Positions 34,961-52,399 of a stretch of DNA of 64,000 nt are shown here, in pieces (the stretch's first letter is position 1; every line of letters starts with the position of its first letter). The notes under the pieces are model-generated. The model was given only the letters and a program-made list of their open reading frames with translations, did not search any database and was not told the origin of the DNA. A program made the translations under genes and the position numbers. Source of the stretch: Longispora fulva (GTDB lineage Bacteria > Actinomycetota > Actinomycetes > Mycobacteriales > Micromonosporaceae); assembly GCF_015751905.1 (NCBI RefSeq), contig NZ_JADOUF010000001.1:372001-436000 (forward strand), given 5' to 3'.

Positions 34961-36055
34961 TCATGATCGCGTTCGGTCCGAGTTCGTGGCGATGCGGTGA
35001 GTTGGGTGTGTCGCCAGGAGGTCGTGGGCCCACCGCGCGCTGTCGTGCGCCGTGGTGGGGAGGGCGGACAGGTGATTCACGCCTTCGTAGCAGCGAAACG
35101 TGGCGTCGGTACCACACTCGCGTAGTTGGGTTTGGAGTCGCGCTGTGCTCTTCGGGGGCGAGAGGATGTCCCGGGTGGTGGTGCACAGCAGCAAGGGCGG
35201 GTGGTATCGGGTGACCGGGGGCCGGGCCTCGGCGAGAAGGCATTGGATGTCGAGGCGTCGCATCATGCCGCTGACTCCGAGGTCACTGTTGCGGAACGGT
35301 GCCATGGCGGCCCGCATCTGTGGCATGGACGCGGTGGCCGCCACCTCGACCAGTCGGTTCCCGTGGTCGGTCAGGAAGTCGCGAGGCTCGAAGGTCGGGC
35401 TGTGTGCTCGCATGCCGGCGAGCAGCATCGGTACCAGCTGCTCGACAGGGGAGTCCTCATCCTTGGTGACGGCGGTGAAGAACGTCGGATAGTCCAGCGG
35501 GGCCAGGGCGACCGTCCCACGGAAGTCCAACTCCGGTGCGTGGGACTGCCACAGGAGTGCGGCGTACAGCGCCACGTCGGCGCCTTGGGAGAAGCCGGCG
35601 GCGATCACCGGAGCGTCGATCGGCGCTCCGAGGTCTTGGACGGCCCGGGCGATGTCGAGGATGTCGCTGGCGAGCGGCTCCCCGTAGGGGTAGGGAGTGA
35701 TGCCATGGGCATCGAGCCCCAGGTAGTCCGCCGCGGCCACCACGAACCCTCGTCGCAACCAGGCGGTGAGGTGGACGCGTTCGAGACGGGGCAGACCTCC
35801 CAACGACGGAGCGTTCGACCCCCCGATCCCGACCATGCAATGCGCCCAGGTCACGATCGGCCAACCCGTCCCGGACGGCTCGGCCTCGGGAAGGAACACC
35901 GAACCTGAGGTCAGCCGTCCCCTGCTCCAGTACCGTAGCCGCATTCCCTGCCGGCTACCCTCGGGCCACAGATCAGCGGGAAGCGCCGAGACGTCGGCCA
36001 GAGTGCCTGATGTCCCCGCGAGGACGTGTGGCCGGGCTGAATCGACGAGAGTCAT
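34961..36055 (-). CDS. Alpha/beta hydrolase, secretory-lipase (LIP) family-like
   Basis: A 364-residue serine hydrolase. Seen: GTVALAPLDYPTFFTAV, the oxyanion-side TWAHCMVGIGGSNAPSLG, FVVAAADYLGLDAHGITPYP, and the nucleophile elbow IAAGFSQGADVALYAALL. A late Asp in LLLCTTTRDILSPP and His in YEGVNHLSALP complete a plausible triad. No signal peptide is evident from ATG 36055, unlike classical secretory lipases. It is a paralogue of the next gene and probably co-transcribed, 45 bases downstream of it. Substrate is likely an ester or acylglycerol. Confidence 0.8.
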   Translation of the reverse strand: MTLVDSARPHVLAGTSGTLADVSALPADLWPEGSRQGMRLRYWSRGRLTSGSVFLPEAEPSGTGWPIVTWAHCMVGIGGSNAPSLGGLPRLERVHLTAWLRRGFVVAAADYLGLDAHGITPYPYGEPLASDILDIARAVQDLGAPIDAPVIAAGFSQGADVALYAALLWQSHAPELDFRGTVALAPLDYPTFFTAVTKDEDSPVEQLVPMLLAGMRAHSPTFEPRDFLTDHGNRLVEVAATASMPQMRAAMAPFRNSDLGVSGMMRRLDIQCLLAEARPPVTRYHPPLLLCTTTRDILSPPKSTARLQTQLRECGTDATFRCYEGVNHLSALPTTAHDSARWAHDLLATHPTHRIATNSDRTRS

Positions 36056-36100: not shown

Positions 36101-37711
36101 TCAGGCACGGCCGAAGAGCCAGTAGCCGGGGGCCTCAGGATTCTTGCCGAGACAGAAGTCGCGGATGCTGGCGACGATCTCCGTCACGTCGAGGCTGCCG
36201 TCGCGGTTGGTGTCGAGTTCGGCGAGAATCTCGCCCGATTCGTTCTCCCCGACGCCGCACCCGGCGAGCAGGGCGCGGAACTTCTCCCGGGTGAGCACCT
36301 GGCCGTCGGGTTCGACGAGTGCGATGACCGCTCTGGCGAGGGACTCCACTGTGGTGTCGAATTCCGGCGAGGTGGCGACGTCGGATGAGGCAAGGAACTC
36401 TTCGAGACTGATGGTGCCATCGCCGTCGATGTCGAGCTGTTCTCGCAGCACGCGCCAGAGTGCGCGGTATCCCGCACGGATCTGCCTGGCCAGCGGCGCA
36501 CCAGGGGCCTGGCCGAAGCGTTGTACCAGCCGCAGCGCCAGTGCCTCGAAGTCGCCGGCACTGAGGTGGCCGTCGCCCGTGGCGTCGAGGACCCGAAACC
36601 GCCTGTCCCTGCCGGAGTCCCTCCCCACTGCCGGTCGGAGATCACCGGATGCGGTGTCGACCAGCGCACGGGCCCAGGCGGAGGCGTCCAGCCCTGCGGG
36701 TTTCAACAGTTCGAGGTGGTCGGCGCCGTCATAGCCGTGGAAGGTGACGTCGTTGCCGGCGGTCTTCATCTCCCCTGCGAACGCCGCGGCCTGCGCCGCG
36801 GGCAGAATGGGGTCGAGCTCTCCGGCACCGATGAACAGCGGACGATCACATCGGGTGACCGGCAGGTCGGCGTACGCGAGGAGGAGCTGCACCTCGCGGC
36901 GCTCGGTGAGGCCGGTGAAGCCGGCGTCGTCGTTGCTCGTGGTCGCCGCCGCCTCCTCGACGGCACCCATCGACTGCGTTGCCGCCAGGTTCAACAGACG
37001 CATGCCCTTGTCCGTGAGGAACCGTTCGGCCGCGAACTCGGGGTGCGTCACCTGTAGTCCGGCCAGGACCACGGGAACGAGAGCATCGACGAGCTCGTCG
37101 CCCTTGGTGGTCCTGAGCGCGATGAAGTCGATGAACCGCACCGGCGGGGCCAGGGAGACGGTGCCGCGCAGGTCCAACTCGGGGGCGTAGGAGGTGCACA
37201 TGATGGCCGTGTAGAGCGCACCGTGGCCGCCCTGGGAGAACCCCCCGATCACGGTGCGGGTGTCCACCGAGACATCGAGCTGGTGGACCGCGCGAACGAT
37301 GTCGACGATGTCGTCGGCGATCGCCTCACCGTTGAGGTACGGGTGCGGCTCCGGAGTCCCCAGACCCTCGTAGTCGCTGGCGGCCACGACGAACCCTTGC
37401 CGCAGCCAATCGGAGAGGTGTTCACGCTCCGCGGGAAGCAGGCCCACCCGGGATGGTGCGTTGTTGCTGTTGAGCCCGACCGTACAGTGCGCCCACCCCA
37501 ACACCGGCCGGGTCGCCCCCGCCGACCCGGCCTCGGGCACGAAGACCGAACCGGCGACGGAACGCGACCTCCCGAGGTAGTCCACGCCCTGGTACTCGAT
37601 GCGGAAAGCGTCCGCCGCGCCCACCGGCCACAACTCCCGGGGCAGCTTCTCGGCATGGAGAAGCGTTCCAGGCTTGCACTCGGAACCAGACAGCCGCACC
37701 TCGGACCGCAT
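36101..37711 (-). CDS. Alpha/beta hydrolase (LIP-like) fused to a four-EF-hand calcium-binding domain
   Basis: A 536-residue two-part protein. Residues ~1-355 are a LIP-like hydrolase paralogous to the downstream gene, with nucleophile Ser159 in IGGFSQGGHGAL, Asp ~300 in GAGELDPILP and His ~332 in DGADHLELL. Residues ~365-520 hold EF-hands: loops at 376-387 (DATGDGHLSAGD), 427-438 (DIDGDGTISLEE) and 500-511 (DTNRDGSLDVTE), plus a degenerate third near 466-476. The EF part resembles actinobacterial CalD-like proteins. ATG 37711 is chosen for its GGAGGG site; a longer upstream frame lacks one. No signal peptide is seen. Calcium control of the esterase is an inference. Confidence 0.82.
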   Translation of the reverse strand: MRSEVRLSGSECKPGTLLHAEKLPRELWPVGAADAFRIEYQGVDYLGRSRSVAGSVFVPEAGSAGATRPVLGWAHCTVGLNSNNAPSRVGLLPAEREHLSDWLRQGFVVAASDYEGLGTPEPHPYLNGEAIADDIVDIVRAVHQLDVSVDTRTVIGGFSQGGHGALYTAIMCTSYAPELDLRGTVSLAPPVRFIDFIALRTTKGDELVDALVPVVLAGLQVTHPEFAAERFLTDKGMRLLNLAATQSMGAVEEAAATTSNDDAGFTGLTERREVQLLLAYADLPVTRCDRPLFIGAGELDPILPAAQAAAFAGEMKTAGNDVTFHGYDGADHLELLKPAGLDASAWARALVDTASGDLRPAVGRDSGRDRRFRVLDATGDGHLSAGDFEALALRLVQRFGQAPGAPLARQIRAGYRALWRVLREQLDIDGDGTISLEEFLASSDVATSPEFDTTVESLARAVIALVEPDGQVLTREKFRALLAGCGVGENESGEILAELDTNRDGSLDVTEIVASIRDFCLGKNPEAPGYWLFGRA

Positions 37712-37849
37712 AGTCGCCAACCCTCCACACGCTGCTCCGCAGGGTGGCTCCCTCTTCGGCCAGCCCAGCAATTTGGACAAACTATACCGTAACGTCGTCT
37801 GGCGCGCCTGTCCGCCCTGCCCGTCATGTACCACTAAACTCTTTTCCTG

Positions 37850-38842
37850 ATGATTGACTACGATCCGAAAAACTGGGCATCGGTCGTGGTGCGGTTCCAC
37901 GGAACGATCGCACCGCGGCTGGTTGTACGAGTGGGCATCGCAGCCGGCCTTGGCCTCGTGGCGGCGCTGCTCAACACGCGAGGGTTCAAGATGTCGGCCA
38001 CCGCGCACACGCTCATCGGTGTCGCTCTGGGGTTGCTGCTGGTGTTCCGCACCAACGCCTCGTATGAGCGGTACTGGGAGGGGCGGAAGCTGCTCGGTGT
38101 GATGATCACCCGCTCACGGGACCTCGCACGGCAGGTGACCTCTTTCCCCCACAGTGATCTGCCATGTGTGCAGCCCGCGGTGGCTGATGTCTGCCGGTAC
38201 CTGAGCGCGTTCTTCAAGCTCGGCATGCAGAGCTTGCGAGGCGAGCGGGACCTGGCCGCACTCGGCGACCTTCTGACCGCCGAGGAACGGAGTGTCCTCC
38301 AGCCTCACGCGGCCCGCGCGCCGATGATGACCTCCCTGATGTCGGCCCGCATCGCGGAGTTGGCGCGTGCCGGTGCGCTCGAACCCCATCACGTCATGGT
38401 GATGGACGCGAACATCACCGCGCTTCAGGACGCTTTTGGCGGATGTGAACGCATCGTGCGAACCCCCGTGCCGTTCGCCTACGCGCAGCACATCAAACTG
38501 GCGCTGCTGCTGTTCACGGCCACGGTGCCGTTCGCGATCGCCGACACGACCCGTTGGTTGACGCCGATAGCAAGCGCCTTCATCGCATACGCCCTCATCG
38601 GCATCGATGAGATCGGGGTCGAGATCGAAGAGCCGTTCGGGCATGATCCCAATGACCTGCCCATCGACAAGATCGCCCAGGCGATCGCGGACGGCGTGGA
38701 AGACATCTCCAGCGCCTCGGTCATGGCCCGGCGACTCACGGCCGGAGGCGACTCGTCCGTCGAGGTGCCGACTGTCATGCCCAAGGCGAAGAACGTTTCA
38801 CACCCTGAAGGTGCCATGGCTCAGGAGGGGGCGCGTGCCTGA
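37850..38842 (+). CDS. Bestrophin-like chloride channel family protein
   Basis: Bestrophin/UPF0187 membrane protein of 330 residues. Seen: MIDYDPKNWASVVVRFHGTI at the start, LIGVALGLLLVFRTNASYER, YWEGRKLLGVMITRSRDLAR, and LLLFTATVPFAIADTTRWLT followed by IGIDEIGVEIEEPFGHDPND. These are family landmarks, including the acidic C-terminal region after the last helices. No ribosome site precedes ATG 37850; a TAAACT ten bases upstream hints at a leaderless mRNA. It is divergent from the EF-hand hydrolase. It probably conducts anions; bacterial members vary in selectivity. Confidence 0.88.
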   Translation: MIDYDPKNWASVVVRFHGTIAPRLVVRVGIAAGLGLVAALLNTRGFKMSATAHTLIGVALGLLLVFRTNASYERYWEGRKLLGVMITRSRDLARQVTSFPHSDLPCVQPAVADVCRYLSAFFKLGMQSLRGERDLAALGDLLTAEERSVLQPHAARAPMMTSLMSARIAELARAGALEPHHVMVMDANITALQDAFGGCERIVRTPVPFAYAQHIKLALLLFTATVPFAIADTTRWLTPIASAFIAYALIGIDEIGVEIEEPFGHDPNDLPIDKIAQAIADGVEDISSASVMARRLTAGGDSSVEVPTVMPKAKNVSHPEGAMAQEGARA

Positions 38843-39250: not shown

Positions 39251-40286
39251 CGGATTCCGGCTGTTGCCGTGCGCGGAGATGTGGAGCCGGCTATGTCGGC
39301 GAGCGGCGGGAAATTGCAGTGTTCACCTGGCGGGACAGTGTCGGCGGTCAATGTCGCGCCTCAAATTCATCATCCACAGTGGTGTCGTGGCGAAAGGGCA
39401 CAGTGGATGTCAGAGTTTCGATGACTGCCCCTACAGGGACTGGCTGGTTCGCGGCCGGACCATATTCGCGACCATTGGGCGGCCGGCTCGACGATGACGG
39501 CGTGCCCGCGGCGGAGCGGCCGCTTGCGGGCCTGGGTGAAGTTGTTTGCAGCAACCAAGCGCCGGCGGGCTCGGGCGTCCTCCGGGACGGTCAGGCCCCG
39601 TGTGGTCGAGCGCGATCCGGCGGCCATGGGCGATGCCCGCTATTCAATTTTCCCACTGAGAGTGGCTCGCGCGAGTTATCTTGCCCTTTCCTTTCCGGTG
39701 CCGCCGGCGACTTTATCGGTGCGGACTTCCAGCGCACACCTACGTTATTGTCACCCTGCCCGGAGATTGTGAATTCGGAATGGGCTCGCCATTGTCGCGA
39801 CCGCTTGTAGGGCGGGCATTGGATTTCGGCTTCGGTTGATCATTCCTCGCGGGACGAGTGGTGCTCGCGTCATCGACTCGGGCGTCCGGGGCATCCCGGA
39901 GAGTGGGATCACGGCCAGGTATTTTTCCCTATTTGGTCGGGTGTTTGGGGATAAATGGGACGCCTCGGCAAGCTTGGTCCTTCCGTGAATGCCCCTGAAC
40001 CCTTCGAGGTTGGTCGATATGTTGGGCGGTGGCTGCCTGCAATTGCATCCCACCTGCTTTGCCGCTTTTATTTTGGACATACCGTCCATTGTCATTGAGA
40101 GATGTTGATCATTACGAGATACTCAAGATCCAATGTTGCGGTCTTGATTTCTCGCACGCTACGCTGTCGCCCGTCAATATCGCCATGGCGGCAAACGTTT
40201 CGTGGCGCCCCCGCAGTGCACATGCCGAGCTCCCCTCGAATGGGGCGAAGCCGGCTGTCGGGGATGCCTATCGAGGAGAGCATTCA
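39251..40286. other. Gene-poor, lower-GC stretch upstream of the biosynthetic operon
   Basis: About 1 kb in which no frame has convincing codon usage or a recognisable family. From roughly 39640 the base composition is clearly less GC-rich than the surroundings. Two small perfect inverted repeats lie at 39653-39665 (CCACTGAGAGTGG) and 39666-39675 (CTCGCGCGAG). The last 150 bases hold a likely promoter for the operon. It looks like an insertion boundary or decayed DNA. Confidence 0.5.
40136..40165 (+). promoter_or_regulatory. Predicted promoter of the hydrazine-type biosynthetic operon
   Basis: TTGCGG (40136-40141) and TACGCT (40160-40165) are spaced by 18 bases. This gives a leader of about 115 bases before GTG 40287. 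The match is moderate. Confidence 0.35.
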
Positions 40287-41564
40287 GTGAGCCCACATAC
40301 ACACGGAGCTAGTGAGCGCCCACTCCTGGTCGTCGTCAGCAGCCTGGGTCAGAGCACCCGCGAGCCCTTCCTGGCCTCCCTGGCCGGGCACTACCGGGTC
40401 TGGCTCTTCATCGGCGGCCCCGGCCGCGCCGACGAGCCCAGCTGGGAGGTGCCGTACCTGACCGGGCACACCGTGGTCGACACCCTCGACGCCGACGCGA
40501 TGCTCGCGGCGGCGCAGAAGCTGGCCGCCGAGGAGACCATCACCGGGATCCTCACCTACGACGAGGCACGCGTCGTGCCCACCGCCGTCGTCGCCACCGC
40601 GCTGGGCCTGCCGACGAGCGAGCCCGAGGCGTTCGCCCGCTGTCGCGACAAGACGGCGTCCCGCGAGGCACTGGCGGCCTGCGGGGTGCCGCAGGCGACC
40701 TCCGTCTCCGTGCGCTCCCTCGACCACGCCCGCGAAGTGGCCGCCGAGCTGGGGTATCCGGTGGTCGTGAAGCCCCGCCACCTCGCCACGAGCATCGCGG
40801 TGATCCGGGCGGACTCGCCCGCGGACCTCGAGGTCGCCTACGACGCGGCCCGGTCGGCGACCCTGCCGGAGACCCCCGCGTACTACGAGTTCGGGGTCCT
40901 GGTCGAGGAGTTCCTCGACGGGTACGAGATCAGCGTCGACTCCGCCTGCTTCGACGGGCGCGTGGTTCCGCTGGCGGTGGCGCGCAAGGCGACCGGCTAC
41001 GCACCGTCCTTCGAGGAGACCGGGCACGTCGTCGACGGCCGGGTCGACTGGGCCGCTGACGACGAGCTGATGGACGTCCTGGTCCGGGCGCACGCCGCCG
41101 TCGGCCTGCACACGGGCACGTCGCACGTGGAGCTGAAGTACACCTCGAGCGGGTTGAAGGTTGTGGAGATCAACGCCCGACTGGGCGGTGACCTCGTGCC
41201 CTACCTGGGACAGCTGGCCACCGGGGTGGACCTGAGCCTGGCCGCGGCCGCGATCGCCACCGGAGCGCCGGTGGACCTCGAGCGCACCGAGAGCCGGGTC
41301 GCGGCGATCCGGTTCTACTACCCCGCGACCGAGGTGACCGTCCGCTCGGTCGACTTCGACCGGTCGCTGTTGCCGGCGGGCACCGAACGGGCCGTCCCGC
41401 TCGCCCAGCCCGGCCAGGAGATGCTGCTCCCGCCGCGTGGCTTCGGCTGGATGTCCCGGCTGGCGCACGTCGTCGTCGTGGCCCCCGACACCGAGACCGC
41501 GGCGGCGGCCCTGGACGCCGCCGCCGGCGCACTGCTGGTCGTCACCGAGGAGAGCACGCTATGA
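40287..41564 (+). CDS. ATP-grasp carboxylate-amine ligase (first of two)
   Basis: A 425-residue ATP-grasp enzyme that probably forms an amide or peptide bond through an acyl-phosphate. Seen: LGYPVVVKPRHLATSIAVIR (ATP-binding Lys), VLVEEFLDGYEISVDS, TGTSHVELKYTSSGLKVVEI and NARLGGDLVPYLGQLATGVD with the metal-binding Glu/Asn. A C-terminal ~100-residue extension follows. The frame is open well upstream, but GTG 40287 follows GAGGAGAG. It is the first gene of the operon, and its stop overlaps the MFS start. Substrates are unknown; an amino acid or hydrazino acid is suggested by context. Confidence 0.87.
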   Translation: MSPHTHGASERPLLVVVSSLGQSTREPFLASLAGHYRVWLFIGGPGRADEPSWEVPYLTGHTVVDTLDADAMLAAAQKLAAEETITGILTYDEARVVPTAVVATALGLPTSEPEAFARCRDKTASREALAACGVPQATSVSVRSLDHAREVAAELGYPVVVKPRHLATSIAVIRADSPADLEVAYDAARSATLPETPAYYEFGVLVEEFLDGYEISVDSACFDGRVVPLAVARKATGYAPSFEETGHVVDGRVDWAADDELMDVLVRAHAAVGLHTGTSHVELKYTSSGLKVVEINARLGGDLVPYLGQLATGVDLSLAAAAIATGAPVDLERTESRVAAIRFYYPATEVTVRSVDFDRSLLPAGTERAVPLAQPGQEMLLPPRGFGWMSRLAHVVVVAPDTETAAAALDAAAGALLVVTEESTL

Positions 41565-42823
41565 GTGGTTCCACCGTCGAGCAGGCCGGCCCCTGGGTGA
41601 CGTTCCGCGAGTTGAGCGGCACGGTGCGCCTGGCGATGCTGGGTGTGTTCGTCAACCAGTTCGGCTTCTTCCTGCAGGCGTTCCTGGTGCTGTACCTGAC
41701 CCATCGTGGCTTCTCCGAGCAGAAGGCCCTGTATGCGATGGCGGCCTACGGCCTCGGCGCGGTCATCGGGCTGCTGTTCGGCGGTCAGCTCACCGACCGG
41801 GTGAGCCCACGCACGACGATCATCCTGTCGATGGCGGCCACGACGGTGCTGCCGCTGACGATCACGTTCATGTCGAGTTACCCGGCGATCGTCGCGGTGG
41901 TCGTGCCCGCCGGGATCATGGCCCAGCTGTACCGGCCGGCCTCCAGCGCCATTCTCGCGGCACTGGTTCCACCGGCGCGGCACGTGATGGCGTTCTCGAT
42001 GAACCGGATCGCGATGAACCTGGGCGTGGTGTTCGGGCCGCTGGCCGCAGGCCTGCTGATCGCCGCGAACCTGTGGGACCAGCTGTTCTGGGTCACCTCC
42101 GTCACCTCGGCGATCTATGCGCTGATCGCCGTGTTCTTCCTGCCCAAGGGCCGCATCGGCGAGGAGTCCGCAGCGTCGGGCGGCGAGGCGGCCACGGAGC
42201 GCCGCAGCATCCTGCGGGACGGCCGGTACATGGTGTTCCTGTTCGCGGTGCTGGCCAACGCGCTGGTCTACGTCCAGTCATACGCGCTTCTGCCGCTGAC
42301 GCTCAAGGACCGGGGCCACTCCGACCAGTTGTTCAGCCTGATCCTGACCGTCTCGGCGCTGGTCCTGATCTCCTGTGAGCTGCTGATCACGAAGATCACC
42401 CAGACCTGGCAGGCCCGGTTCGCCGCGGCGGCCGGACTCGCACTGCTGGGCATCGGCATGGCCGCCTACGGGCTGCCGGTCGGCGGGCTGGTGGTCGTCT
42501 TCCTCGGCGCGGCGGTCGTCGTGTTCGGGCAGATCATCGGCGGCCCGAGCATCTTCGCCTATCCGGCCAAGGTTGCCCCGCCGGGAACCATCGGCCGGTA
42601 CATGGGCGGCTTCTTCGCCGCCTTCGGCCTCGGCCAGGCTCTCGGCCCGATGCTCGTGGCCCCGGCCCACCAGTGGTTCGGGGAGTCCCTCTGGTTCGCC
42701 ATCGGAGGCCTGTCGTTGATCGCCGGGCTCGCGGCCCTGGTCGGCATGCGCGGCGCGGCCGTCCAGCCCCCGACCCCTGACGCCGCCACGGAGCCGGCGG
42801 ACTCCGCCCCGGCTACGGCCTGA
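41561..42823 (+). CDS. MFS transporter, probable product exporter
   Basis: Major facilitator of 420 residues with about twelve hydrophobic segments. Seen: GVFVNQFGFFLQAFLVLYLT in TM1, the loop 2-3 motif LFGGQLTDRVSPRTTII, and AILAALVPPARHVMAFSMNR. ATG 41561 overlaps the ATP-grasp stop as ATGA, so it is co-translated with the biosynthetic genes. Export of, or self-resistance to, the final product is the natural reading. Confidence 0.88.
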   Translation: MSGSTVEQAGPWVTFRELSGTVRLAMLGVFVNQFGFFLQAFLVLYLTHRGFSEQKALYAMAAYGLGAVIGLLFGGQLTDRVSPRTTIILSMAATTVLPLTITFMSSYPAIVAVVVPAGIMAQLYRPASSAILAALVPPARHVMAFSMNRIAMNLGVVFGPLAAGLLIAANLWDQLFWVTSVTSAIYALIAVFFLPKGRIGEESAASGGEAATERRSILRDGRYMVFLFAVLANALVYVQSYALLPLTLKDRGHSDQLFSLILTVSALVLISCELLITKITQTWQARFAAAAGLALLGIGMAAYGLPVGGLVVVFLGAAVVVFGQIIGGPSIFAYPAKVAPPGTIGRYMGGFFAAFGLGQALGPMLVAPAHQWFGESLWFAIGGLSLIAGLAALVGMRGAAVQPPTPDAATEPADSAPATA

Positions 42824-42875
42824 CCCCCTTCCGACCCCTCGGCGCGGCGGCCACGCCGCGCGGCAAGGACCCCTC

Positions 42876-43232
42876 ATGCGCACATTCACCAGTCACGACG
42901 CCGCTTTGACCAACGAGTACGGCATCCAGGTCGGCCGCTGGTCGCAGTACGAGAACCTGTCCGGGCTGCCCTTCGACGCGATGTGGTGCGTCATCGAGCC
43001 CGGCGGCTCCACCACCGAGCACGGCCACCCCGAGGTGGAGTACATGGTGGTGCTCAGCGGCTCCGGCCGGCTCACCACCCCGAACGCGGTGACGGAGGTC
43101 GAGCCGGGAACGGTGCTCCTCCTCGACAGCGACGAGACGCACGTCATCGACAACCTCTCCGACTCCGAGCGACTCGTCCTGCTCAGCACCTACTGGCTGC
43201 CCGGGGCGAGCCAGGAAGGCCCGTCCGCGTGA
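42876..43232 (+). CDS. Stand-alone cupin, putative N-N bond-forming (hydrazine synthetase) subunit
   Basis: Single-domain cupin of 118 residues with a metal site: HGHPEVEYMVVLSGSGRL gives His49, His51 and Glu55, and DETHVIDNLSD gives His89. In known hydrazine synthetases (Spb40 of s56-p1 and homologues in triacsin and formycin clusters), a zinc cupin domain joined to a MetRS-like domain rearranges an N-hydroxylysine-amino acid ester to make the N-N bond. Here the cupin is separate, and its stop overlaps the MetRS-like start as GTGA. AAGGA precedes the ATG. Function is inferred from this exact gene company. Confidence 0.8.
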   Translation: MRTFTSHDAALTNEYGIQVGRWSQYENLSGLPFDAMWCVIEPGGSTTEHGHPEVEYMVVLSGSGRLTTPNAVTEVEPGTVLLLDSDETHVIDNLSDSERLVLLSTYWLPGASQEGPSA

Positions 43233-44596
43233 GCGCCGAGGCGCGCGGCCTGACGCTGATCACCGCGATCCAGCCGACCCCGAACGGTCCGCTGCACCTC
43301 GGGCACCTGTCCGGCCCGTACGTCGCGGCGGACATCGCGGCGCGGGCGGCCAGGGCGGCCGGCCGGGACGTCATGATCATGGGCGGGCTCGACACCCACC
43401 AGAACTACGTGCTCACCCGGGCCGAGGCCGACGGCCGGACGGGCGCGGAGAGTTGCACCGCGTACTCCGACCTGATCCGCCGGGGCATGGCCGCCGCGCG
43501 GCTGGAGTACGACCTGTTCCTGGACCCGCAGACCGACGGGTCCTACCGGCGGGGCGTCGCGGCACTGTTCACCGAGCTGGTCGATGGCAAGGTCATCCCG
43601 GTCGGCGAGGCCACGCTCGCCACCTGCGCGGACTGCGCGAGGGTCGTGCACCACGCCAGGGTGTCGGGGCGGTGCCCGCACTGCGGTCAGGGCGCCAGCG
43701 GCGGGACCTGCGAGGGCTGCGGGAGCTTCCTGACCGCGCTGGACCTGCTTGACGCGACCTCGACCTGCCACGGGACGGCGCTGGTTCCGGCGGCGTTCCG
43801 GGTGCCGGTGCTCAAGCTCGAGGACCACCGGTCCCAGCTGGCCGAACACTGGGCGAAGTCGGTCATGCCGCCCAGGGTCCGCACGCTGCTCGCCGGCTAC
43901 CTGGCCACCGGTCTGCCCGAGATTCCACTCGCGTACCCCAGCGACTGGGGCATCGCGTGGGACTGCGACGGCGCGGAACTGCGGATCGACGTGTGGGCGG
44001 AGATGGCCCTGGGCTACCTGTACGCGGTGTCCCGGCACCTGGACGCCGACGCCCCCGCCACCCTCGTGGCCTGCGTGGCCGGCTGGGCGGGCGTCGGGGA
44101 GATGTGGAACTTCTTCGGCATCGACAACGCCTTCTACCACCTGGCGCTGATCCCGGCCGTGCTCCAGGCCGCCGGCCTGCGGTCCGGGCCACGGATGGGC
44201 CTGGTGGTCAACGAGTTCTACCTCCTCGACGGGATGAAGTTCTCCACCAGCCGTGGCCACGCGATCTGGTCGCACGAACTGCTCGCCACCGAGGACCCGG
44301 CCGTCGTCCGCGCCTACCTGAGCTGGGACCGGCCCGACACCCACGGCACCGACTTCACCCTGGCCGGGTTCACCGCGTTCAAGGAGTACCTGGGCCGAAT
44401 CCTCGCAGGGGTCGACGCCTCCCCGCTGCCGGCGGCGCTCGCCGACGCGGAGCTGGAGCGGGCCCTGCGGGCGCTGCGGCTGGAGACCTTCGACGTGGCG
44501 GCGGCGGTACGGGGCGCGGTGAACGCGCACGCGGCCCGACCCGAGGGGGCCCGGCGGGTCCTGGACGCGGTGTTCGGGATCGGGCAGCCCGGATGA
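43229..44596 (+). CDS. Methionyl-tRNA synthetase-like ligase, hydrazine synthetase partner
   Basis: Class I aminoacyl-tRNA-synthetase-like protein of 455 residues. Landmarks: a HIGH-type motif HLGH (residues 23-26) in [20 protein letters not shown], a Cys-rich zinc knuckle with Cys at about 133, 136, 149, 152, 161 and 164, and a KMSKS-type motif KFSTSRG (~337). It is shorter than housekeeping MetRS and its anticodon-binding region is reduced or absent, arguing against a translation role. By analogy to characterised hydrazine synthetases it should activate an amino acid (often glycine) and ester-link it to N-hydroxylysine for the cupin. GTG 43229 overlaps the cupin stop. Confidence 0.85.
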
Positions 44597-45672
44597 GAGT
44601 GGGCATCGTCGGGGACGGGATCGCCGGCACGCTCCTGACCTGGCAGCTCGCCCGGACCCACCGGGATCTGGACCTCACACTGTTCCCCGGTGCGACCGTC
44701 GGGCACCCGCCCGCGGTGGTGACCGCCTCGGCGGCGTCCGGCGGACTCGTCCGGGGCTTCGAGGCCGACCCACGCTCGCGCGCCCACGCGACGGCGGCTC
44801 TGACCGAGTTGTTGGCCAGCCCGACCCTGCGCCGCTGGTCGCGGTACACCGAAACGGGTTCGGTGTATGTGCTCACACACGGTCGGATCGCCGCCGACGG
44901 CGCGGACGAGCTCGACCGGTCGGTGCGGGACTCGGTCGAACTGGTCGACGGAGCGGCCCTGCGGACGAGGTACGGCTTCGAGGGGCTGCCCGCGCACGCG
45001 GTCGGCGTCGCCGAACGGCGGGCCGGGTACGTTTCCCCGGCGCACTGGCGGGACGCCGTCCTGACCGAGCTCGGCTGGCTGGGCGTGACGGTGGCCGCGC
45101 CGGTGTCCGCGCTCGCGGCCGGTCCTGTGGCCGCCTGCGATGTCGTGATCGTGGCAGCCGGCGCATGGACCGCCCCACTGCTGTCCGCCGCAGGGTTCCC
45201 GGCCGGCGGACTGCGCACCAAGATGATCCAGTACGGCGTCTACCCGGCCTCGGGGCTCCTGCCGCCGTGCTTCGTCGACGACACCAGCGGCCTGTACGGC
45301 CGGCCGGCGCCCGGGGGCATGCTGCTTGGACTGCCCACCGAGGGCTGGGACGTGGCACCGGAGGACGTGCGCGCTGACGCCGGGCTCGCGGACCACGTGG
45401 GCGCCGCGTCGGCGCTGCGGCTGCCGGGGCTGCGGCTCGACGGGCGGCCCAGGCTGGTCGCGGCCACCGACTCCTATCACGACGCGCCGGGCCTTCGGCT
45501 GCGCCGGGTCGGCGACGCGCACGTGTACACCTTCGCCGGCGGCAGCGGGGGTGCCGCCAAGACCGTGCTCGCGGCCAGCGCAGAAGCCGCTGGGCACCTC
45601 GTCCGGGGACTGCGGTCGAGTACGACCACCACCATCGGCACCACAGCGGGAGACGACTTTCGTGGCAACTGA
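44593..45672 (+). CDS. FAD-dependent amine/amino-acid oxidase-like protein
   Basis: DAO-family oxidoreductase of 359 residues: N-terminal FAD motif VGIVGDGIAGTLLTWQLA, substrate-domain pieces RRAGYVSPAHWRDAVLTELG, VIVAAGAWTAPLLSAAG, and a C-terminal FAGGSGGAAKTVLAASAE FAD contact. In the known pathway a flavoenzyme (Spb39/Tri27 type) oxidatively cleaves the lysine-glycine hydrazine to release hydrazinoacetate; this gene sits in the corresponding place. ATG 44593 overlaps the MetRS-like stop as ATGA, and its 3' end overlaps the N-hydroxylase by 11 bases. Confidence 0.83.
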   Translation: MRVGIVGDGIAGTLLTWQLARTHRDLDLTLFPGATVGHPPAVVTASAASGGLVRGFEADPRSRAHATAALTELLASPTLRRWSRYTETGSVYVLTHGRIAADGADELDRSVRDSVELVDGAALRTRYGFEGLPAHAVGVAERRAGYVSPAHWRDAVLTELGWLGVTVAAPVSALAAGPVAACDVVIVAAGAWTAPLLSAAGFPAGGLRTKMIQYGVYPASGLLPPCFVDDTSGLYGRPAPGGMLLGLPTEGWDVAPEDVRADAGLADHVGAASALRLPGLRLDGRPRLVAATDSYHDAPGLRLRRVGDAHVYTFAGGSGGAAKTVLAASAEAAGHLVRGLRSSTTTTIGTTAGDDFRGN

Positions 45673-46933
45673 CATTCCGGAATATCACGCGGTAGGCATC
45701 GGCGCCGGCCCGGCCAACCTGAGCGTGGCCGCTCTGTTCGACAAGGTGGGACCGGGGCGGGAACTGGCGCTGTTCGAGAGCCAGAGCGCCCCGGGCTGGC
45801 ACGACACCATGCTGCATGCCGGGGTGCGGATGCAGACCGGGTGGCTCAAGGACCTGGTGTCGCTGCTGGACCCGACCCACCACCTGTCCTTCCTGAACTA
45901 CCTCGTCACCACCGGCCGGGTGTTCGGCCTGATCGGTGCGGGGTTCGACACGATTCCCCGGATCGAGTTCACCCAGTACCTGGAGTGGGCCGCCCAGCAG
46001 CTGCCCCGGATCAGCTACGGGGTGCGCATCGACCAGGTGTCCTTCGAGGACGGCCGGTTCGTCAGCCACAGCGGGGGCAGGGCCGTGGCCCGGTCCGAGC
46101 ACCTGCTGGTGGCCACCGGAACCCGGCCGCAGATGCCGAACTGGTTCGCCGCGCTGCCGGCCGACCGGGCGATCATCGCCGACGGGTTGTCGCAGCGGCT
46201 CGCCGACCTGCCCGCCGACCTGGACGCGCCGATCCTCGTGGTCGGCAGCGGGCAGACCAGCGCGGAGTGCGTCAACGTCCTGCTCGGGCGGGGCCACACC
46301 GACATCCGGTGGGTGGGCCGGCGGTCCTGGTTCGCGCCGCTGGAGGACTCGCCCTCGGCGAACGACCTGTACCGGCCGGCCTACCAGGAGTACTTCCTCG
46401 GACTGCCGCGTCAGGCCCGCCGGGACCTGGTGGGTTCGCAGATCCTCACCAGCGACGGCATCTCCCCGGGCACGCTCAGCGGCCTGTACCAGAGCAACTA
46501 CGAGTCGCGCCTGCGAACCGGCCGGTTCCCGGTGACGATCCTGCCTGCCCGCGACGTCGTCGAGGCCCGGATGGTGGGCGACGAGATCGAGCTCGGGTGC
46601 GACACGCCCGGGGGCCGCGACGCGCAGCGGGGCGTGTTCGTGGTGCTCGCGGCCGGCCGGACGACCGCGCCGCTGCCGTTCGACGCCGAGCTGGCGCGGG
46701 AGGTCGACGTGTCCGACGCCGGCGAGCCGATCATCGAGGGCGACTACTCGCTGCGGTGGAAGGGCGCCGACCGCAACAAGATCTTCCTGCTCAACCGGGG
46801 CCGGTACGTCCAGGGCCTGGTCGACTCGAACCTGAGCATCCTGCCGATCCGCAGCGCCATGATCATCAACTCGATGGCGCAGCGCTCGGTGTACACCTTC
46901 CGCGACGACTATGTGAGCACCCGGTGGAGCTGA
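45662..46933 (+). CDS. Lysine/ornithine N-monooxygenase (SidA/IucD/PvdA family)
   Basis: Flavin- and NADPH-dependent N-hydroxylating monooxygenase of 423 residues. Seen: FAD motif AVGIGAGPANLSVAALFDKV, MQTGWLKDLVSLLDPTHHLS typical of the family, NADPH motif ILVVGSGQTSAECVNVLLGR, and a C-terminal VLAAGRTTAPLPF. In hydrazine pathways the family member makes N6-hydroxylysine, the first intermediate; ornithine is the alternative and no siderophore synthetase is present here. GTG 45662 is preceded by GGGAGACG and lies inside the 3' end of the oxidase gene. Confidence 0.9.
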   Translation: MATDIPEYHAVGIGAGPANLSVAALFDKVGPGRELALFESQSAPGWHDTMLHAGVRMQTGWLKDLVSLLDPTHHLSFLNYLVTTGRVFGLIGAGFDTIPRIEFTQYLEWAAQQLPRISYGVRIDQVSFEDGRFVSHSGGRAVARSEHLLVATGTRPQMPNWFAALPADRAIIADGLSQRLADLPADLDAPILVVGSGQTSAECVNVLLGRGHTDIRWVGRRSWFAPLEDSPSANDLYRPAYQEYFLGLPRQARRDLVGSQILTSDGISPGTLSGLYQSNYESRLRTGRFPVTILPARDVVEARMVGDEIELGCDTPGGRDAQRGVFVVLAAGRTTAPLPFDAELAREVDVSDAGEPIIEGDYSLRWKGADRNKIFLLNRGRYVQGLVDSNLSILPIRSAMIINSMAQRSVYTFRDDYVSTRWS

Positions 46934-46938
46934 AGCCG

Positions 46939-47277
46939 ATGATCAACTATGACGGGAAGTCGTTCCGGTCCTCGGCCGCCGAGACCAGCCGCGGCAGAAC
47001 GGTTCCGGTCGGCCACTACCACCAGGACGGCGACCTGGTGTGGGCCGAGTTCGCCGGGGGAGCCGTCCGCAACGGGTTCCTGGTGGGCACCGCCGACGCC
47101 GACGGCATCATCACCCTGTCCTACTCCCAGGTACTCGACACCGGCGAGGTGATCTCCGGCCGCTGCACCACCACGCCGACGCTCCTGGAGGACGGCCGGC
47201 TCCGGCTCCGGGAGGAGTGGCACCGGTTCGGCTCCGAAGCCTCCGGTGTGTCCTATATCGACGAGGTAAGGGTGTGA
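46939..47277 (+). CDS. Small beta-rich conserved protein of unknown function
   Basis: A 112-residue protein (GTG 46924 is an alternative start overlapping the N-hydroxylase). The pattern of short alternating strands (YHQDGDLVWAEFAGGAVRNG, GIITLSYSQVLDTGEVISGR, RLRLREEWHRFGSEASG) suggests a small calycin-like beta barrel. Database homologues of this type are often mislabelled N-acetylglutamate synthase; no acetyltransferase motif is seen here. It is locked between the N-hydroxylase and the second ATP-grasp gene, so it probably handles or binds a pathway intermediate, which is an inference. Confidence 0.65.
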   Translation: MINYDGKSFRSSAAETSRGRTVPVGHYHQDGDLVWAEFAGGAVRNGFLVGTADADGIITLSYSQVLDTGEVISGRCTTTPTLLEDGRLRLREEWHRFGSEASGVSYIDEVRV

Positions 47278-47279
47278 GC

Positions 47280-48521
47280 ATGCGCGTACTCGTCCTCAAC
47301 CGGTTCCTGCTGCGGTTCATCCCGTACAGCGGCTACGACACCGGGGACAACGAACTGGTACTGATCACCAGCGCGTCCGGGATCAGCCCCGATCCGGCGC
47401 AGCGGGAGAAGGACCTGGCGGGGTACGCCAGGGTCGTGATCGTGGACAACCCGCTGAACTCCGCGGAGTTCGAGTACCAGGCGAACCTGTTGCACGCGGA
47501 GTTCGGCTTCGGCGCGGTCGTGGCCCTGGCCGAGGCGGACCTGCTCACCGCCGCCCGGCTCCGTACCCGTTGGGGCATCGCCGGGCAGAACTGGGACGCC
47601 ACGGTGCCCTACCGCGACAAGCTGGAAATGAAGCGGGTGCTGTCCGCCGCGGGCATTCCCGTGGCCCCGTTCGCCCGCGTCGACAACGTCACCGACCTGC
47701 TGGGCTTCGTCGACCAGGTCGGCTACCCGGTGGTCGTCAAGCCCCGGCGGAGCAGCTCCTCGCTCGGCGTCCGGGTGCTGCGCGACACCGCGGACCTGGC
47801 GGCGTTCGTCGGCGTGGACACCCCGCTGCGGGGTGACGTGCCCCCGGACTACCTGGCCGAGCGGTACATCCCGAACGAGATGTACAACGTTGACGGGATC
47901 GTCACCGGCGGCGAGGTCACGCTGTGCTGGCCCTCGGCGACGACCTCCTGCCTCGGCTTCGCCGACGACGAGATCCTGCTCGCGGCTGGCCTGGAGCCCG
48001 GCGAGGACTGGCAGGCCGACCTCGTCGACCTCGTCCGCCGCACCATGGCGGTACTGCCCACGGAGACCGAGACCCTGTTCCACGCGGAGGTCTTCCGCAC
48101 CCCCGACGGCCGCCTCGTCCTCAACGAGATCGGCTGCCGGATGGGCGGCGGAAGGATCTGGGAACAGTTCCTGATCTCCTTCGACATCGACATCATCGCC
48201 GCCCACCTGCGCCGGCTGCTCGGTTCGAAGGATCCGGCCCCGGTGACCAGAACCGAACCGGCGCCGCAGACCGGATGGGCGCTCATGCCGCCCCGCCCGG
48301 GCACGGTGGCCGCCGTCCCCACCGACTGTCCGGTACCGGGGATCCGGCACTTCGACACCGGCCTGAAGGTCGGCGCCGAACTCGGCCGGCCCCAGTCGAG
48401 CGTCGACGCGATCGCCTCCTTCGTCGCGGCGGGCGCGACCCGCGCCGAGGTTCAGGCGGCGCTGACCGCGGCGGCGGAATGGTTCTACGCGGAACTCAAA
48501 CTCGAGGAGCCCTTGGCCTGA
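47280..48521 (+). CDS. ATP-grasp ligase (second of two)
   Basis: A 413-residue ATP-grasp protein distinct from the first. Seen: RDKLEMKRVLSAAGIPVAPF, QVGYPVVVKPRRSSSSLGVR (ATP Lys), LAERYIPNEMYNVDGIVTGG, and metal ligands in RLVLNEIGCRMGGGRIWEQF. Its N-terminal ~90 residues form a pre-ATP-grasp domain (MRVLVLNRFLLRFIPYSGYD). ATG 47280 is preferred over GTG 47274 by ribosome-site spacing to GAGGTAAGG. It is the last gene of the operon. Two dissimilar ligases imply at least two amide/peptide bonds in the product. Confidence 0.87.
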   Translation: MRVLVLNRFLLRFIPYSGYDTGDNELVLITSASGISPDPAQREKDLAGYARVVIVDNPLNSAEFEYQANLLHAEFGFGAVVALAEADLLTAARLRTRWGIAGQNWDATVPYRDKLEMKRVLSAAGIPVAPFARVDNVTDLLGFVDQVGYPVVVKPRRSSSSLGVRVLRDTADLAAFVGVDTPLRGDVPPDYLAERYIPNEMYNVDGIVTGGEVTLCWPSATTSCLGFADDEILLAAGLEPGEDWQADLVDLVRRTMAVLPTETETLFHAEVFRTPDGRLVLNEIGCRMGGGRIWEQFLISFDIDIIAAHLRRLLGSKDPAPVTRTEPAPQTGWALMPPRPGTVAAVPTDCPVPGIRHFDTGLKVGAELGRPQSSVDAIASFVAAGATRAEVQAALTAAAEWFYAELKLEEPLA

Positions 48522-50425: not shown

Positions 50426-50604
50426 TCCCTTCTCGAGGTGTTCGAGGAGTTGACCGGTGTTCCATGCCTGGTCAACACCTCGTTCAACGTGGCGGAGGAG
50501 CCGGTGGTCTGTTCCCCGAGGACGCGTTGCGCTGCTTCCCCGGTACCGGAAATGACTATCTTGTCTTGGAAGACTTCCTCGTCGCAAAATCCGAAGGTCA
50601 CTGA
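50426..50604 (+). pseudogene. C-terminal remnant of a NodU/CmcH-type carbamoyltransferase, frameshifted
   Basis: One frame reads LLEVFEELTGVPCLVNTSFN then VAEEPVVCSP, the conserved C-terminal motif of O-carbamoyltransferases. A single missing base near 50517-50520 shifts the reading frame, which continues EDALRCFPGTGNDYLVLEDF and ends LVAKSEGH at TGA 50602. The N-terminal ~90% of the gene is absent. Family members carbamoylate natural products, so this is a relic of a larger pathway. The stop lies two bases before the next gene's ATG. Confidence 0.75.
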
Positions 50605-50605
50605 C

Positions 50606-52399
50606 ATGCCTGGTACCGAGCCGCAGCCCTACTGCCTGTTCCACGCGAACGGTCGCACCCGCCACGCCACCGGCGAGGTGCGGTACACGACACTGCTGGC
50701 GGACATGCCCCGCCCCACCGGGCTGCCGGTGATCAGCATGGTGCCGTTCACCCAGCTCCGGGAGCGCGGATTCCTGCTGCACGACGGCGGCGAGCCCATC
50801 ATCTCGCTGGTGGCCACGGAATGCCGCGACGTGGACCTCGACGCGGTGCTGACCGGTCCCGAGCCGACCTTCGGCCTGTCCGAGGTCGTCTTCGACGTGA
50901 GCGACGAGGAGTTCGCGGAGAAGGTCCGGCTGGCGATCTCGGAGGAGATCTGTCGCGGCGAGGGATCCAACTTCCTGATCTCGCGACGGGGCCAGGCGAA
51001 GATCGAGGGCTTCTCGCCGGAGGTGGCCCGGGTCATCTTCCGCCGCCTGGTGCTCAACGAGCCCAACGCCTACCTGACCTTCGTGTTCTTCGACGGTGAG
51101 CGCTACTTCATCGGGTCGTCCCCGGAGCGCCACCTCACCTTCGAGCGCGACGTCGTGACGATGAACCCGATCTGCGGCACCCTGCCGAAGGCCGCGCTGA
51201 CCAAACGGGCGGACCTCATCGAGTTCCTCACCGACCCCAAGGAGATCAACGAGCTGTTCCAGGTCGTCGACGAGGAACTGAAGATGATGTCGCGGATCTG
51301 TTCCGAGGGCGGGGTCGTCAAGGGCCCGTACCTGAAGGAGATGAGCGCGCTGATCCACACGGAGTACGTGCTCGTCGGGCACAGCCACATGGACAAGGTC
51401 GACGCCTTCCGCGAGTCGATGTTCGCGGCCACGATGATCGGCAGCCCGCTGGAGAACGCCGCCCGGATCATCCACAAGTACGAGGACCGGTCCCGGCGCT
51501 ACTACTCCTCGGCCATCGTGCTCAACGGGATCGACGACGGGGGCGAGGAGTACCTCGACAGCGCGATCACGATCCGGACCATGGAGGTCACCACGTCCGG
51601 CGACGTGTTCGTGCAGAGCGGCGGCAGCGTCGTGCGCGACTCCTCCCCGGAGAAGGAGACCAAGGAGGTGCACGCGAAGGTGGCCGGCCTGCTGCGCGCC
51701 ATCACCTCCGCGGAACGGTCGGAGCCCAGGCTGGGGCTGTACCTCGATCCGACGGTCGAGGAGATCCTGCAGTCGCGGAACAAGTACCTGTCCCGATTCT
51801 GGACCGACAGCCAGGAGAACGTCGCGGCCCCGGCCGAGGCCCCGACCGGGTCGATCCTCGTGGTGGACAACGAGGACGAGTTCACCCGGATGCTCGGTCA
51901 CGTCCTGACCCACCTCGGCTTCGACGTGACGGTCCGCGACTACGACGACCCCGCGCTCACGCTGGCCGGGGCGGACCTGGTGCTCGTCGGCCCAGGTCCC
52001 GGCGATCCGACCGATCCGGACGACCCGAAGATGCGCCGGGTGCGCGAACTGGTGGGCGAACTACTCGCCAACAAGACGAAGTTCCTCGCGGTCTGCCTTG
52101 GCCACCAGGTCGTGTGCCAGATGCTCGGCATGGACATCGTCGCGGTGGACCCGCCGCTGCAGGGTGTCCAGCAGTCGGTGAACCTGTTCGGCCGCCAGGA
52201 GCCGGTCGGGTTCTACAACACCTACTTCGCCCAGCTACCGGACGTCGCGCCGACCGGGGTGCAGATCGCCGCCGAGGCGGACGGCAGGGTCGTGGCGCTG
52301 CGGTCGGAGAACTTCTGCACCTTCCAGTTCCACGTGGAATCCGTGCTCACCAGCAACTGCGTGTCCATCCTGAGAGAGGCGTTGACGTGTCTGCAATGA
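50606..52399 (+). CDS. Fused anthranilate synthase / ADIC synthase-like enzyme (TrpE-TrpG, PhzE-like)
   Basis: A 597-residue chorismate-utilising enzyme with an N-terminal TrpE-like synthase (~1-390) and a C-terminal class I glutamine amidotransferase (~405-597). Seen: FVFFDGERYFIGSSPERHLT, NPICGTLPKA, SHMDKVDAFRESMFAATMIG, and for the amidotransferase GPGPGDPTDPDDPKMRRVRE, the nucleophile Cys in AVCLGHQVVCQMLGMD and a His-x-Glu in FQFHVES. The fusion and motifs resemble PhzE, which makes 2-amino-2-desoxyisochorismate. GAAGG precedes ATG 50606. No phenazine or other ADIC-using genes follow, so the pathway seems incomplete here or finished elsewhere. Confidence 0.88.
   Translation: MPGTEPQPYCLFHANGRTRHATGEVRYTTLLADMPRPTGLPVISMVPFTQLRERGFLLHDGGEPIISLVATECRDVDLDAVLTGPEPTFGLSEVVFDVSDEEFAEKVRLAISEEICRGEGSNFLISRRGQAKIEGFSPEVARVIFRRLVLNEPNAYLTFVFFDGERYFIGSSPERHLTFERDVVTMNPICGTLPKAALTKRADLIEFLTDPKEINELFQVVDEELKMMSRICSEGGVVKGPYLKEMSALIHTEYVLVGHSHMDKVDAFRESMFAATMIGSPLENAARIIHKYEDRSRRYYSSAIVLNGIDDGGEEYLDSAITIRTMEVTTSGDVFVQSGGSVVRDSSPEKETKEVHAKVAGLLRAITSAERSEPRLGLYLDPTVEEILQSRNKYLSRFWTDSQENVAAPAEAPTGSILVVDNEDEFTRMLGHVLTHLGFDVTVRDYDDPALTLAGADLVLVGPGPGDPTDPDDPKMRRVRELVGELLANKTKFLAVCLGHQVVCQMLGMDIVAVDPPLQGVQQSVNLFGRQEPVGFYNTYFAQLPDVAPTGVQIAAEADGRVVALRSENFCTFQFHVESVLTSNCVSILREALTCLQ

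What the first reader, a model, noticed from the sequence alone, without database searches (positions are those of the whole stretch)
40287..48521. Compact candidate gene cluster for a hydrazine (N-N bond) natural product
One plus-strand operon contains the enzyme set known to build N-N bonds from N6-hydroxylysine and an amino acid (s56-p1, triacsin and formycin pathways): N-hydroxylase (45662), MetRS-like ligase (43229), zinc-type cupin (42876) and FAD oxidase (44593). It adds two dissimilar ATP-grasp ligases, an exporter and a small unknown protein, but no PKS, NRPS or nucleoside genes. That suggests a small hydrazino-acid peptide or amide of a kind I cannot match to a known product. The enzyme set is seen; the product is inferred.
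Basis: partly seen in the sequence, partly recalled or inferred. Interest (0 to 1): 0.87.

Follow-up and report, generated by a model that had tools for sequence, protein, structure and literature searches.

The report
Compact hydrazine-peptide gene cluster
Eight adjacent bacterial genes carry the known enzyme set for making a nitrogen-nitrogen (hydrazine) bond plus two peptide-bond ligases and an exporter, a minimal cluster that recurs across actinobacteria and probably makes a small hydrazine-containing peptide not yet described.

Summary
In detail: one plus-strand operon (40287-48521) encodes ATP-grasp ligase A, MFS exporter, zinc cupin, MetRS-like ligase, FAD oxidase, N-hydroxylase, a 112-aa protein and ATP-grasp ligase B. 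Motifs, trees and neighbourhoods place the core among cupin/MetRS hydrazine synthetases, not siderophore genes. It falls in a 44-member actinobacterial clade that includes the albofungin cluster, apart from the glycine-type (azaserine-like) reference. (1) The small protein accompanies this MetRS clade in 39 of 44 loci and none of 46 outside it (one outlier set aside), and persists in Kribbella beside a lone MetRS: a clade-specific component of unknown function. (2) Core plus ligase A plus MFS recurs in 14 loci; ligase A is orthologous, but the window's second ligase is a different, RizA-like one. The genome holds two further hydrazine clusters. Best explanation: N6-hydroxylysine plus an amino acid gives a hydrazine, the oxidase frees a hydrazino acid, two ligases build a small peptide, MFS exports it. 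Amino acid, cleavage side and product are inferred; a hydrazinoacetate assignment is not supported by the pocket. New variant of a known kind.

The parts
40287..41564 (+). ATP-grasp ligase A (L-amino acid ligase type); orthologous group conserved in compact hydrazine clusters
   Evidence: Pfam ATP-grasp_4; best PDB BL00235 L-amino acid ligase; 19-row group at 100*; catalytic motifs kept
41561..42823 (+). MFS exporter, 38% identical to the MFS of an azaserine-type cluster
   Evidence: Pfam MFS_1; blastp to L146 MFS
42876..43232 (+). Stand-alone zinc cupin (N-N forming); predicted ligands H49, H51, E55, H89
   Evidence: Pfam Cupin_2; alignment A3: H51, E55, H89 invariant; RHS1/PyrN ligands from PMC8664883
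43229..44596 (+). MetRS-like amino acid : N-hydroxylysine ligase, no anticodon-binding domain; not the housekeeping MetRS
   Evidence: tRNA-synt_1g only, residues 10-382; HIGH/KFSTS motifs; tree; housekeeping MetRS at G000:5669789
44593..45672 (+). FAD amine oxidase (DAO superfamily, sarcosine/glycine oxidase fold), predicted to cleave a C-N bond of the hydrazine adduct
   Evidence: Pfam DAO; AlphaFold2 pLDDT 89 and Foldseek to sarcosine oxidase E 2e-20
45662..46933 (+). Flavin N-hydroxylase, alpha-amino-acid type, predicted L-lysine N6-hydroxylase
   Evidence: Pfam Lys_Orn_oxgnase; clade sister to AzsL-type enzymes; K and N residues as in MbtG/KtzI, absent in diamine enzymes
46939..47277 (+). 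112-aa eight-stranded barrel protein, conserved companion of this MetRS clade, function unknown
   Evidence: 39/44 vs 0/46 loci; hydrazine-associated subgroup separated from general copies; model pLDDT 94.8
47280..48521 (+). ATP-grasp ligase B (RizA-like L-amino acid ligase), not orthologous to the second ligase of related clusters
   Evidence: best PDB 4wd3 L-amino acid ligase, which is RizA; tree
40074..40123 (+). Possible operator/promoter: palindrome TGGACATACCGTCCA followed by a sigma70-like TTGAGA-17-GATACT
   Evidence: consensus scan only, 1 found vs 0.4 expected; weak

Best explanation
A minimal biosynthetic operon for a small hydrazine-containing peptide. The N-hydroxylase makes N6-hydroxy-L-lysine. 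The MetRS-like ligase adenylates an amino acid and esterifies it onto the hydroxylamine oxygen. The zinc cupin rearranges the ester to an N-N bond. The FAD oxidase oxidises one C-N bond of the adduct and releases a hydrazino acid. The two L-amino-acid-ligase ATP-grasp enzymes couple it with ordinary amino acids to a di- or tripeptide, and the MFS protein exports it. The barrel protein assists the MetRS/cupin stage. Shown here: gene content, motifs, homology, conservation of the gene set. Inferred from characterised relatives: the first three reactions. Inferred only from family and context: oxidase regiochemistry, ligase order, product, and role of the barrel protein.
For: Family assignments. 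Cupin keeps H51/E55/H89 with H49 in the fourth position, matching the residues shown to be essential in RHS1/PyrN (PMC8664883). MetRS keeps HIGH/KFSTS and lacks an anticodon domain; a housekeeping MetRS lies elsewhere. N-hydroxylase clade sister to azaserine-type enzymes. Core plus ligase A plus MFS recurs in 14 loci, and Catenulispora has the same kinds of eight genes in a different order. No other assembly enzymes nearby. Precedent for two ATP-grasp ligases making tripeptides around an unusual amino acid: phosphonoalamides (PMC11867202).
Against: No product is known. The MetRS pocket is unlike the glycine-type reference and varies between clusters, so the first amino acid is open. The oxidase is only about 20% identical to the azaserine-type oxidase. 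Ligase A homologues also occur in loci without hydrazine genes. The ATP-grasp protein of the azaserine cluster was judged by its authors as perhaps not involved in biosynthesis (PMC10445470).
Confidence: 0.66

Rival explanations
1. The end product is the free hydrazino acid; the ATP-grasp/MFS pair conjugates and exports it as self-protection rather than building the active product.
For: Azaserine-type clusters carry an ATP-grasp + MFS pair next to the N-hydroxylase, and the ATP-grasp protein was thought not to be needed for azaserine (PMC10445470). A Micromonosporaceae relative (L026) has the same five-gene core followed by a LysE-type exporter and no detected ligase. Ligation as self-protection (tabtoxin, phosphonoalamides) is discussed in PMC11867202.
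Against: Two ligases of different subfamilies are present, and two ligases are also kept in Kribbella, Catenulispora and others.
Confidence: 0.2
2. The operon makes free hydrazine (H2N-NH2), as proposed for albofungin, which is then acylated to a hydrazide by an ATP-grasp enzyme.
For: Same MetRS/small-protein clade as the albofungin cluster, whose pathway is proposed to pass through free hydrazine (PMC11705231).
Against: Albofungin-group loci carry an additional FAD_binding_4/BBE oxidase between the DAO and the small protein that the window lacks; with one oxidase only one C-N bond is expected to be cut (inference).
Confidence: 0.1
3. A hydroxamate siderophore cluster using an ornithine/lysine N-hydroxylase.
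For: Many characterised members of the N-hydroxylase superfamily are siderophore enzymes.
Against: Tree places it with hydrazine clusters, apart from the genome's own siderophore-type enzyme L191; no IucA/IucC or NRPS nearby; cupin and MetRS-like genes unexplained.
Confidence: 0.02

Closest known systems
Albofungin (afn/abf) hydrazine genes, Streptomyces monomycini (L058)
   Same: Stand-alone cupin and MetRS-like genes, DAO-type oxidase and the small barrel protein; same 44-member MetRS clade
   Different: Embedded in a polyketide cluster with asparagine synthase-like gene, halogenase and an extra FAD/BBE oxidase; no L-amino-acid ligases detected
Azaserine azsL-azsN with azsJ/azsK (azs-like cluster on pSA3239, L146)
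   Same: N-hydroxylase, FAD oxidase, cupin+MetRS, adjacent ATP-grasp + MFS; MetRS, cupin, N-hydroxylase and MFS 32-38% identical
   Different: Cupin-MetRS fused with a carrier domain, glycine-type pocket, NRPS and carrier enzymes, saccharopine dehydrogenases, no small protein annotated; oxidase only distantly related
RHS1 / PyrN hydrazine synthetases (PMC8664883)
   Same: Zinc-cupin ligands and essential glutamate; MetRS-like partner; RHS1 is also stand-alone
   Different: Glutamate-specific and clustered with a saccharopine dehydrogenase gene; none here
Phosphonoalamide ligases PnaB/PnaC (PMC11867202)
   Same: Two L-amino-acid-ligase ATP-grasp enzymes as the proposed peptide-forming unit
   Different: Warhead is phosphonoalanine, not a hydrazine; sequence relationship not tested
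RizA (4wd3) and BL00235 (3vot) L-amino acid ligases
   Same: Closest solved relatives of ligases B and A
   Different: Low identity; substrate not transferable

Membership tests
Cupin/MetRS hydrazine synthetase | Cupin with Zn ligands and essential Glu (RHS1 D63/H65/E69/H103) | tested here: met
   H49/H51/E55/H89; E55, H51, H89 invariant in 12 relatives; H at position 49 as PyrN H50. Numbering mapped by alignment and by the PyrN spacing
Cupin/MetRS hydrazine synthetase | MetRS-like domain with HIGH and KMSKS-like motifs, no anticodon domain | tested here: met
   [13 protein letters not shown]; Pfam match ends at residue 382 of 455; clade
Cupin/MetRS hydrazine synthetase | Clustered lysine-type N-hydroxylase | tested here: met
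   K/N residues
Cupin/MetRS hydrazine synthetase | Forms an N-N bond in vitro or in vivo | not testable with these tools
   needs enzyme assay
Hydrazinoacetate (Spb38-40/Tri26-28/AzsLMN) type | Glycine-type MetRS pocket | tested here: not met
   E. coli positions 253/254/256/257/260: azs-like reference W,P,M,S,F; window W,A,M,A,Y; positions 53 and 56 differ too
Hydrazinoacetate (Spb38-40/Tri26-28/AzsLMN) type | Closely related FAD oxidase | tested here: not met
   no blastp hit at 1e-2; profile match at superfamily level, 20% identity
Hydrazinoacetate (Spb38-40/Tri26-28/AzsLMN) type | Fused cupin-MetRS | tested here: not met
   separate, overlapping genes
Albofungin-type hydrazine cassette | Same MetRS clade with DAO and small protein | tested here: met
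Albofungin-type hydrazine cassette | Second FAD (BBE) oxidase and asparagine synthase-like transferase | tested here: not met
   none in the operon or in the neighbouring ORFs scanned
L-amino acid ligases (ATP-grasp) | ATP-grasp fold with catalytic motifs and LAL C-terminal domain | tested here: met
   both proteins by Pfam and alignment; the LAL_C2 match is below its cut-off for ligase A
L-amino acid ligases (ATP-grasp) | Dipeptide ligation | not testable with these tools
   assay needed
Hydroxamate siderophore cluster | N-hydroxylase of siderophore type plus IucA/C or NRPS | tested here: not met

The most novel reading that the evidence does not exclude
The 112-aa barrel protein is a so far unrecognised third component of a clade of hydrazine synthetases, albofungin's included, which holds or passes on the unstable O-acyl-hydroxylamine or its amino-acid adenylate. 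Compact cupin-MetRS-DAO-NMO-barrel operons with exchangeable ATP-grasp ligases would then form a family of NRPS-free hydrazine peptides with varying first and second amino acids.
Probability: 0.3. Interest if true: 0.78.

Novelty: new variant of a known kind. Interest (0 to 1): 0.6.

Why it matters
Few enzymatic routes to N-N bonds are known, and the studied ones mostly sit in large NRPS, PKS or nucleoside clusters. An eight-gene operon without them, belonging to a recurring family with varied MetRS pockets and exchanged ligases, is small enough to express whole and could give a new class of hydrazine peptides. The conserved barrel protein makes a concrete question testable: do these hydrazine synthetases need a third protein? 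The solved but unassigned cupin 5j7m gains a likely function.

Tried and rejected
Single-protein genome-contig scan found nothing; the alignment query worked. Fold search for the barrel protein gave only weak avidin/FABP-like matches, E at best 3.6e-3, so no function was drawn from it. Pfam and NCBIfam have no model for it. No paper found in the held library describes such a compact cluster or the small protein in hydrazine clusters; subscription papers, including the albofungin hydrazine transferase and the 2024 hydrazine synthetase papers, are not held, so absence there is not proof. Siderophore reading rejected. Housekeeping MetRS reading rejected. The secreted 121-aa protein (48664), GntR regulator (49359) and chorismate enzyme (50438) gave no match within the relatives' clusters and were left out. 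Fisher p = 2e-20 for the small protein ignores relatedness of the rows, so only the counts are used.
Full report
OBSERVATION. The operon at 40287-48521 (+) is as described. Eight ORFs with overlapping or nearly overlapping ends encode: ATP-grasp A, MFS, cupin, MetRS-like, DAO-type FAD oxidase, Lys/Orn-type N-hydroxylase, a 112-aa protein without any family, and ATP-grasp B. The window is part of an 8.68 Mb single-contig genome. It is placed in the Micromonosporaceae because a 'same family' genome, G209, has a contig of the same length and match position as Micromonospora tulbaghiae. No siderophore synthetase or NRPS condensation domain lies near. The flanking genes are a secretory-lipase pair and a bestrophin upstream, and a secreted 121-aa protein, a GntR regulator and a chorismate enzyme downstream. 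The downstream genes gave no match within the relatives' clusters, so the operon end is placed at 48521.

CORE CHEMISTRY. The stand-alone cupin carries H49-x-H51-x3-E55 and H89; H51, E55 and H89 are invariant in 12 relatives. These line up with RHS1 D63/H65/E69/H103 and PyrN H50/E56/H90; the RHS1 alanine mutants lose activity (PMC8664883), and the same paper reports an invariant Glu in all cupins studied. The MetRS-like protein keeps HIGH and KFSTS signatures, ends shortly after the catalytic domain and is not the housekeeping enzyme, which lies at 5.67 Mb. In a tree of 93 rows it falls in a clade of 44 (SH-aLRT 99) within the hydrazine synthetases. The N-hydroxylase lies in a 28-row clade of hydrazine-cluster enzymes, sister (support 88) to a clade that holds the azaserine-type N-hydroxylases, and separate from MbtG, KtzI, the diamine enzymes and the genome's own siderophore-type enzyme. 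It keeps the Lys (LKDLV) and Asn (SANDLY) residues seen in MbtG and KtzI and lost in the cadaverine/putrescine enzymes. That these contact the substrate alpha-carboxyl/amino group is my own knowledge of this family, not tested.

DIFFERENCE FROM THE HYDRAZINOACETATE PATHWAYS. An azaserine-type cluster on Streptomyces lavendulae plasmid pSA3239 (L146) served as reference; its gene order matches the published azs cluster. Identities are 35% (MetRS), 32% (cupin), 34% (N-hydroxylase) and 38% (MFS). The oxidase gives no blastp hit and only a superfamily-level profile match. Its predicted structure is of sarcosine/glycine-oxidase type. At the positions that form the amino-acid pocket of E. coli MetRS (choice of positions from my own knowledge), alpha-amino-binding D52 is kept, but the pocket differs from the azs-like reference and varies among the compact clusters. 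The first amino acid is thus open and probably differs between clusters.

RELATION TO ALBOFUNGIN. The 44-member clade contains a cluster of Streptomyces monomycini, the albofungin producer (L058; asparagine synthase, halogenase and glutamine synthetase-like genes found). The albofungin group carries an extra FAD_binding_4/BBE oxidase between the DAO and the small protein. I infer that two oxidases there could cut both C-N bonds and yield free hydrazine, as proposed for that pathway (PMC11705231), while one oxidase here would leave a hydrazino acid.

THE SMALL PROTEIN. It was detected near 39 of 44 MetRS genes of the clade and none of 46 others, setting aside L137, an outlier on a long branch that has it. 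Of the five exceptions, three are on short contigs or at a contig end (L052, L054, L084), one shows none of the cluster's other genes (L050), and one has a shortened, apparently deleted version (L067). The hydrazine-associated copies are separated from general copies of the family (near thiamine or branched-chain amino acid genes, among others) by a branch of 98 support. In four Kribbella genomes a MetRS of this clade stands beside the small protein with no cupin, oxidase or N-hydroxylase within the fetched flanks. This ties it to the MetRS step more than to the oxidase. The model is an eight-stranded barrel of high confidence; fold matches are too weak for a function.

THE LIGASES. Ligase A belongs to an orthologous group of 19 rows (100), present in the compact clusters of Catenulispora, Kribbella, Actinomadura, Labedaea, Dactylosporangium and others; the second ligase in many of these is another orthologous group (12 rows, 100). 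The window's ligase B belongs to neither. It groups with RizA and with ligases from two other hydrazine-type loci, L072 and L105 (95, long branches), and no close relative was found in 395 genomes of the class (best 37% identity). So the second ligase was probably exchanged. Catenulispora carries the same kinds of eight genes in a different order, which argues that they work together. Core plus ligase A plus MFS was found in 14 loci. Ligase A homologues also occur outside hydrazine clusters, so ligase A itself is not diagnostic.

MECHANISM AND RIVALS. The best explanation is a small hydrazine peptide built without NRPS; the phosphonoalamide pathway shows that two such ligases suffice for tripeptides around an unusual amino acid (PMC11867202). 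The main rival is that the ligase/MFS pair serves protection and export of a free hydrazino acid. A five-gene core followed by a LysE-type exporter, without detected ligases, does exist in a Micromonosporaceae relative (L026).

VERDICT. Real, well supported as a hydrazine synthetase cluster, product unknown. It is a new variant of a known kind: not hydrazinoacetate-type by the tests run, albofungin-clade core, no NRPS or PKS, with a conserved uncharacterised component and an exchanged second ligase.

Noticed in passing
L023 (G000:C1:1972000-1991999) and L137 (G000:C1:3182000-3201999): Two further hydrazine-type clusters in the same genome, both with ligase A, the small protein and an MFS gene; in L137 the MetRS (31%), cupin and N-hydroxylase are very divergent while ligase A and the small protein are retained.
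   Followed up: partly
PDB 5j7m; L053, L055, L067, L070: The cupin structure 5j7m, deposited without function, is 79-85% identical over 96 residues to the cupins of Kribbella compact hydrazine clusters, so it is probably an N-N forming cupin.
   Followed up: yes
L060, L063, L064, L068: Kribbella genomes keep a MetRS-like plus small-protein pair without the other hydrazine genes, in a conserved chromosomal setting; a 440-aa protein (F17) precedes or flanks it in several.
   Followed up: partly
L023:3881-5212, L041:1600-2964, L043:14756-17656, L066, L032, L064:8446-9768: A 440-450 aa family, no Pfam match for the one member tested, ATP-grasp-like by eye, recurs beside these clusters but is absent from the window.
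   Followed up: partly
L049:13689-14462: In Streptomyces spongiae the five-gene core is followed by an O6-methylguanine DNA methyltransferase-type gene, suggesting a DNA-alkylating product or intermediate.
   Followed up: no
L026:13325-14023: In a Micromonosporaceae relative the five-gene core is followed by a LysE-type amino acid exporter.
   Followed up: partly
window 50438-52399: Chorismate-binding/glutaminase fusion (anthranilate or ADIC synthase type) whose N-terminus begins with about 31 residues of a carbamoyltransferase C-terminus, likely a relic of a lost gene or a start-site artefact.
   Followed up: no
window 36101-38008 (-): Secretory lipase domain joined to EF-hand calcium-binding repeats in one ORF, next to a second secretory lipase (34961-36055).
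   Followed up: no
L146 (NC_024970.2:119860-144975): The Streptomyces lavendulae linear plasmid pSA3239 carries an azaserine-like cluster.
   Followed up: partly
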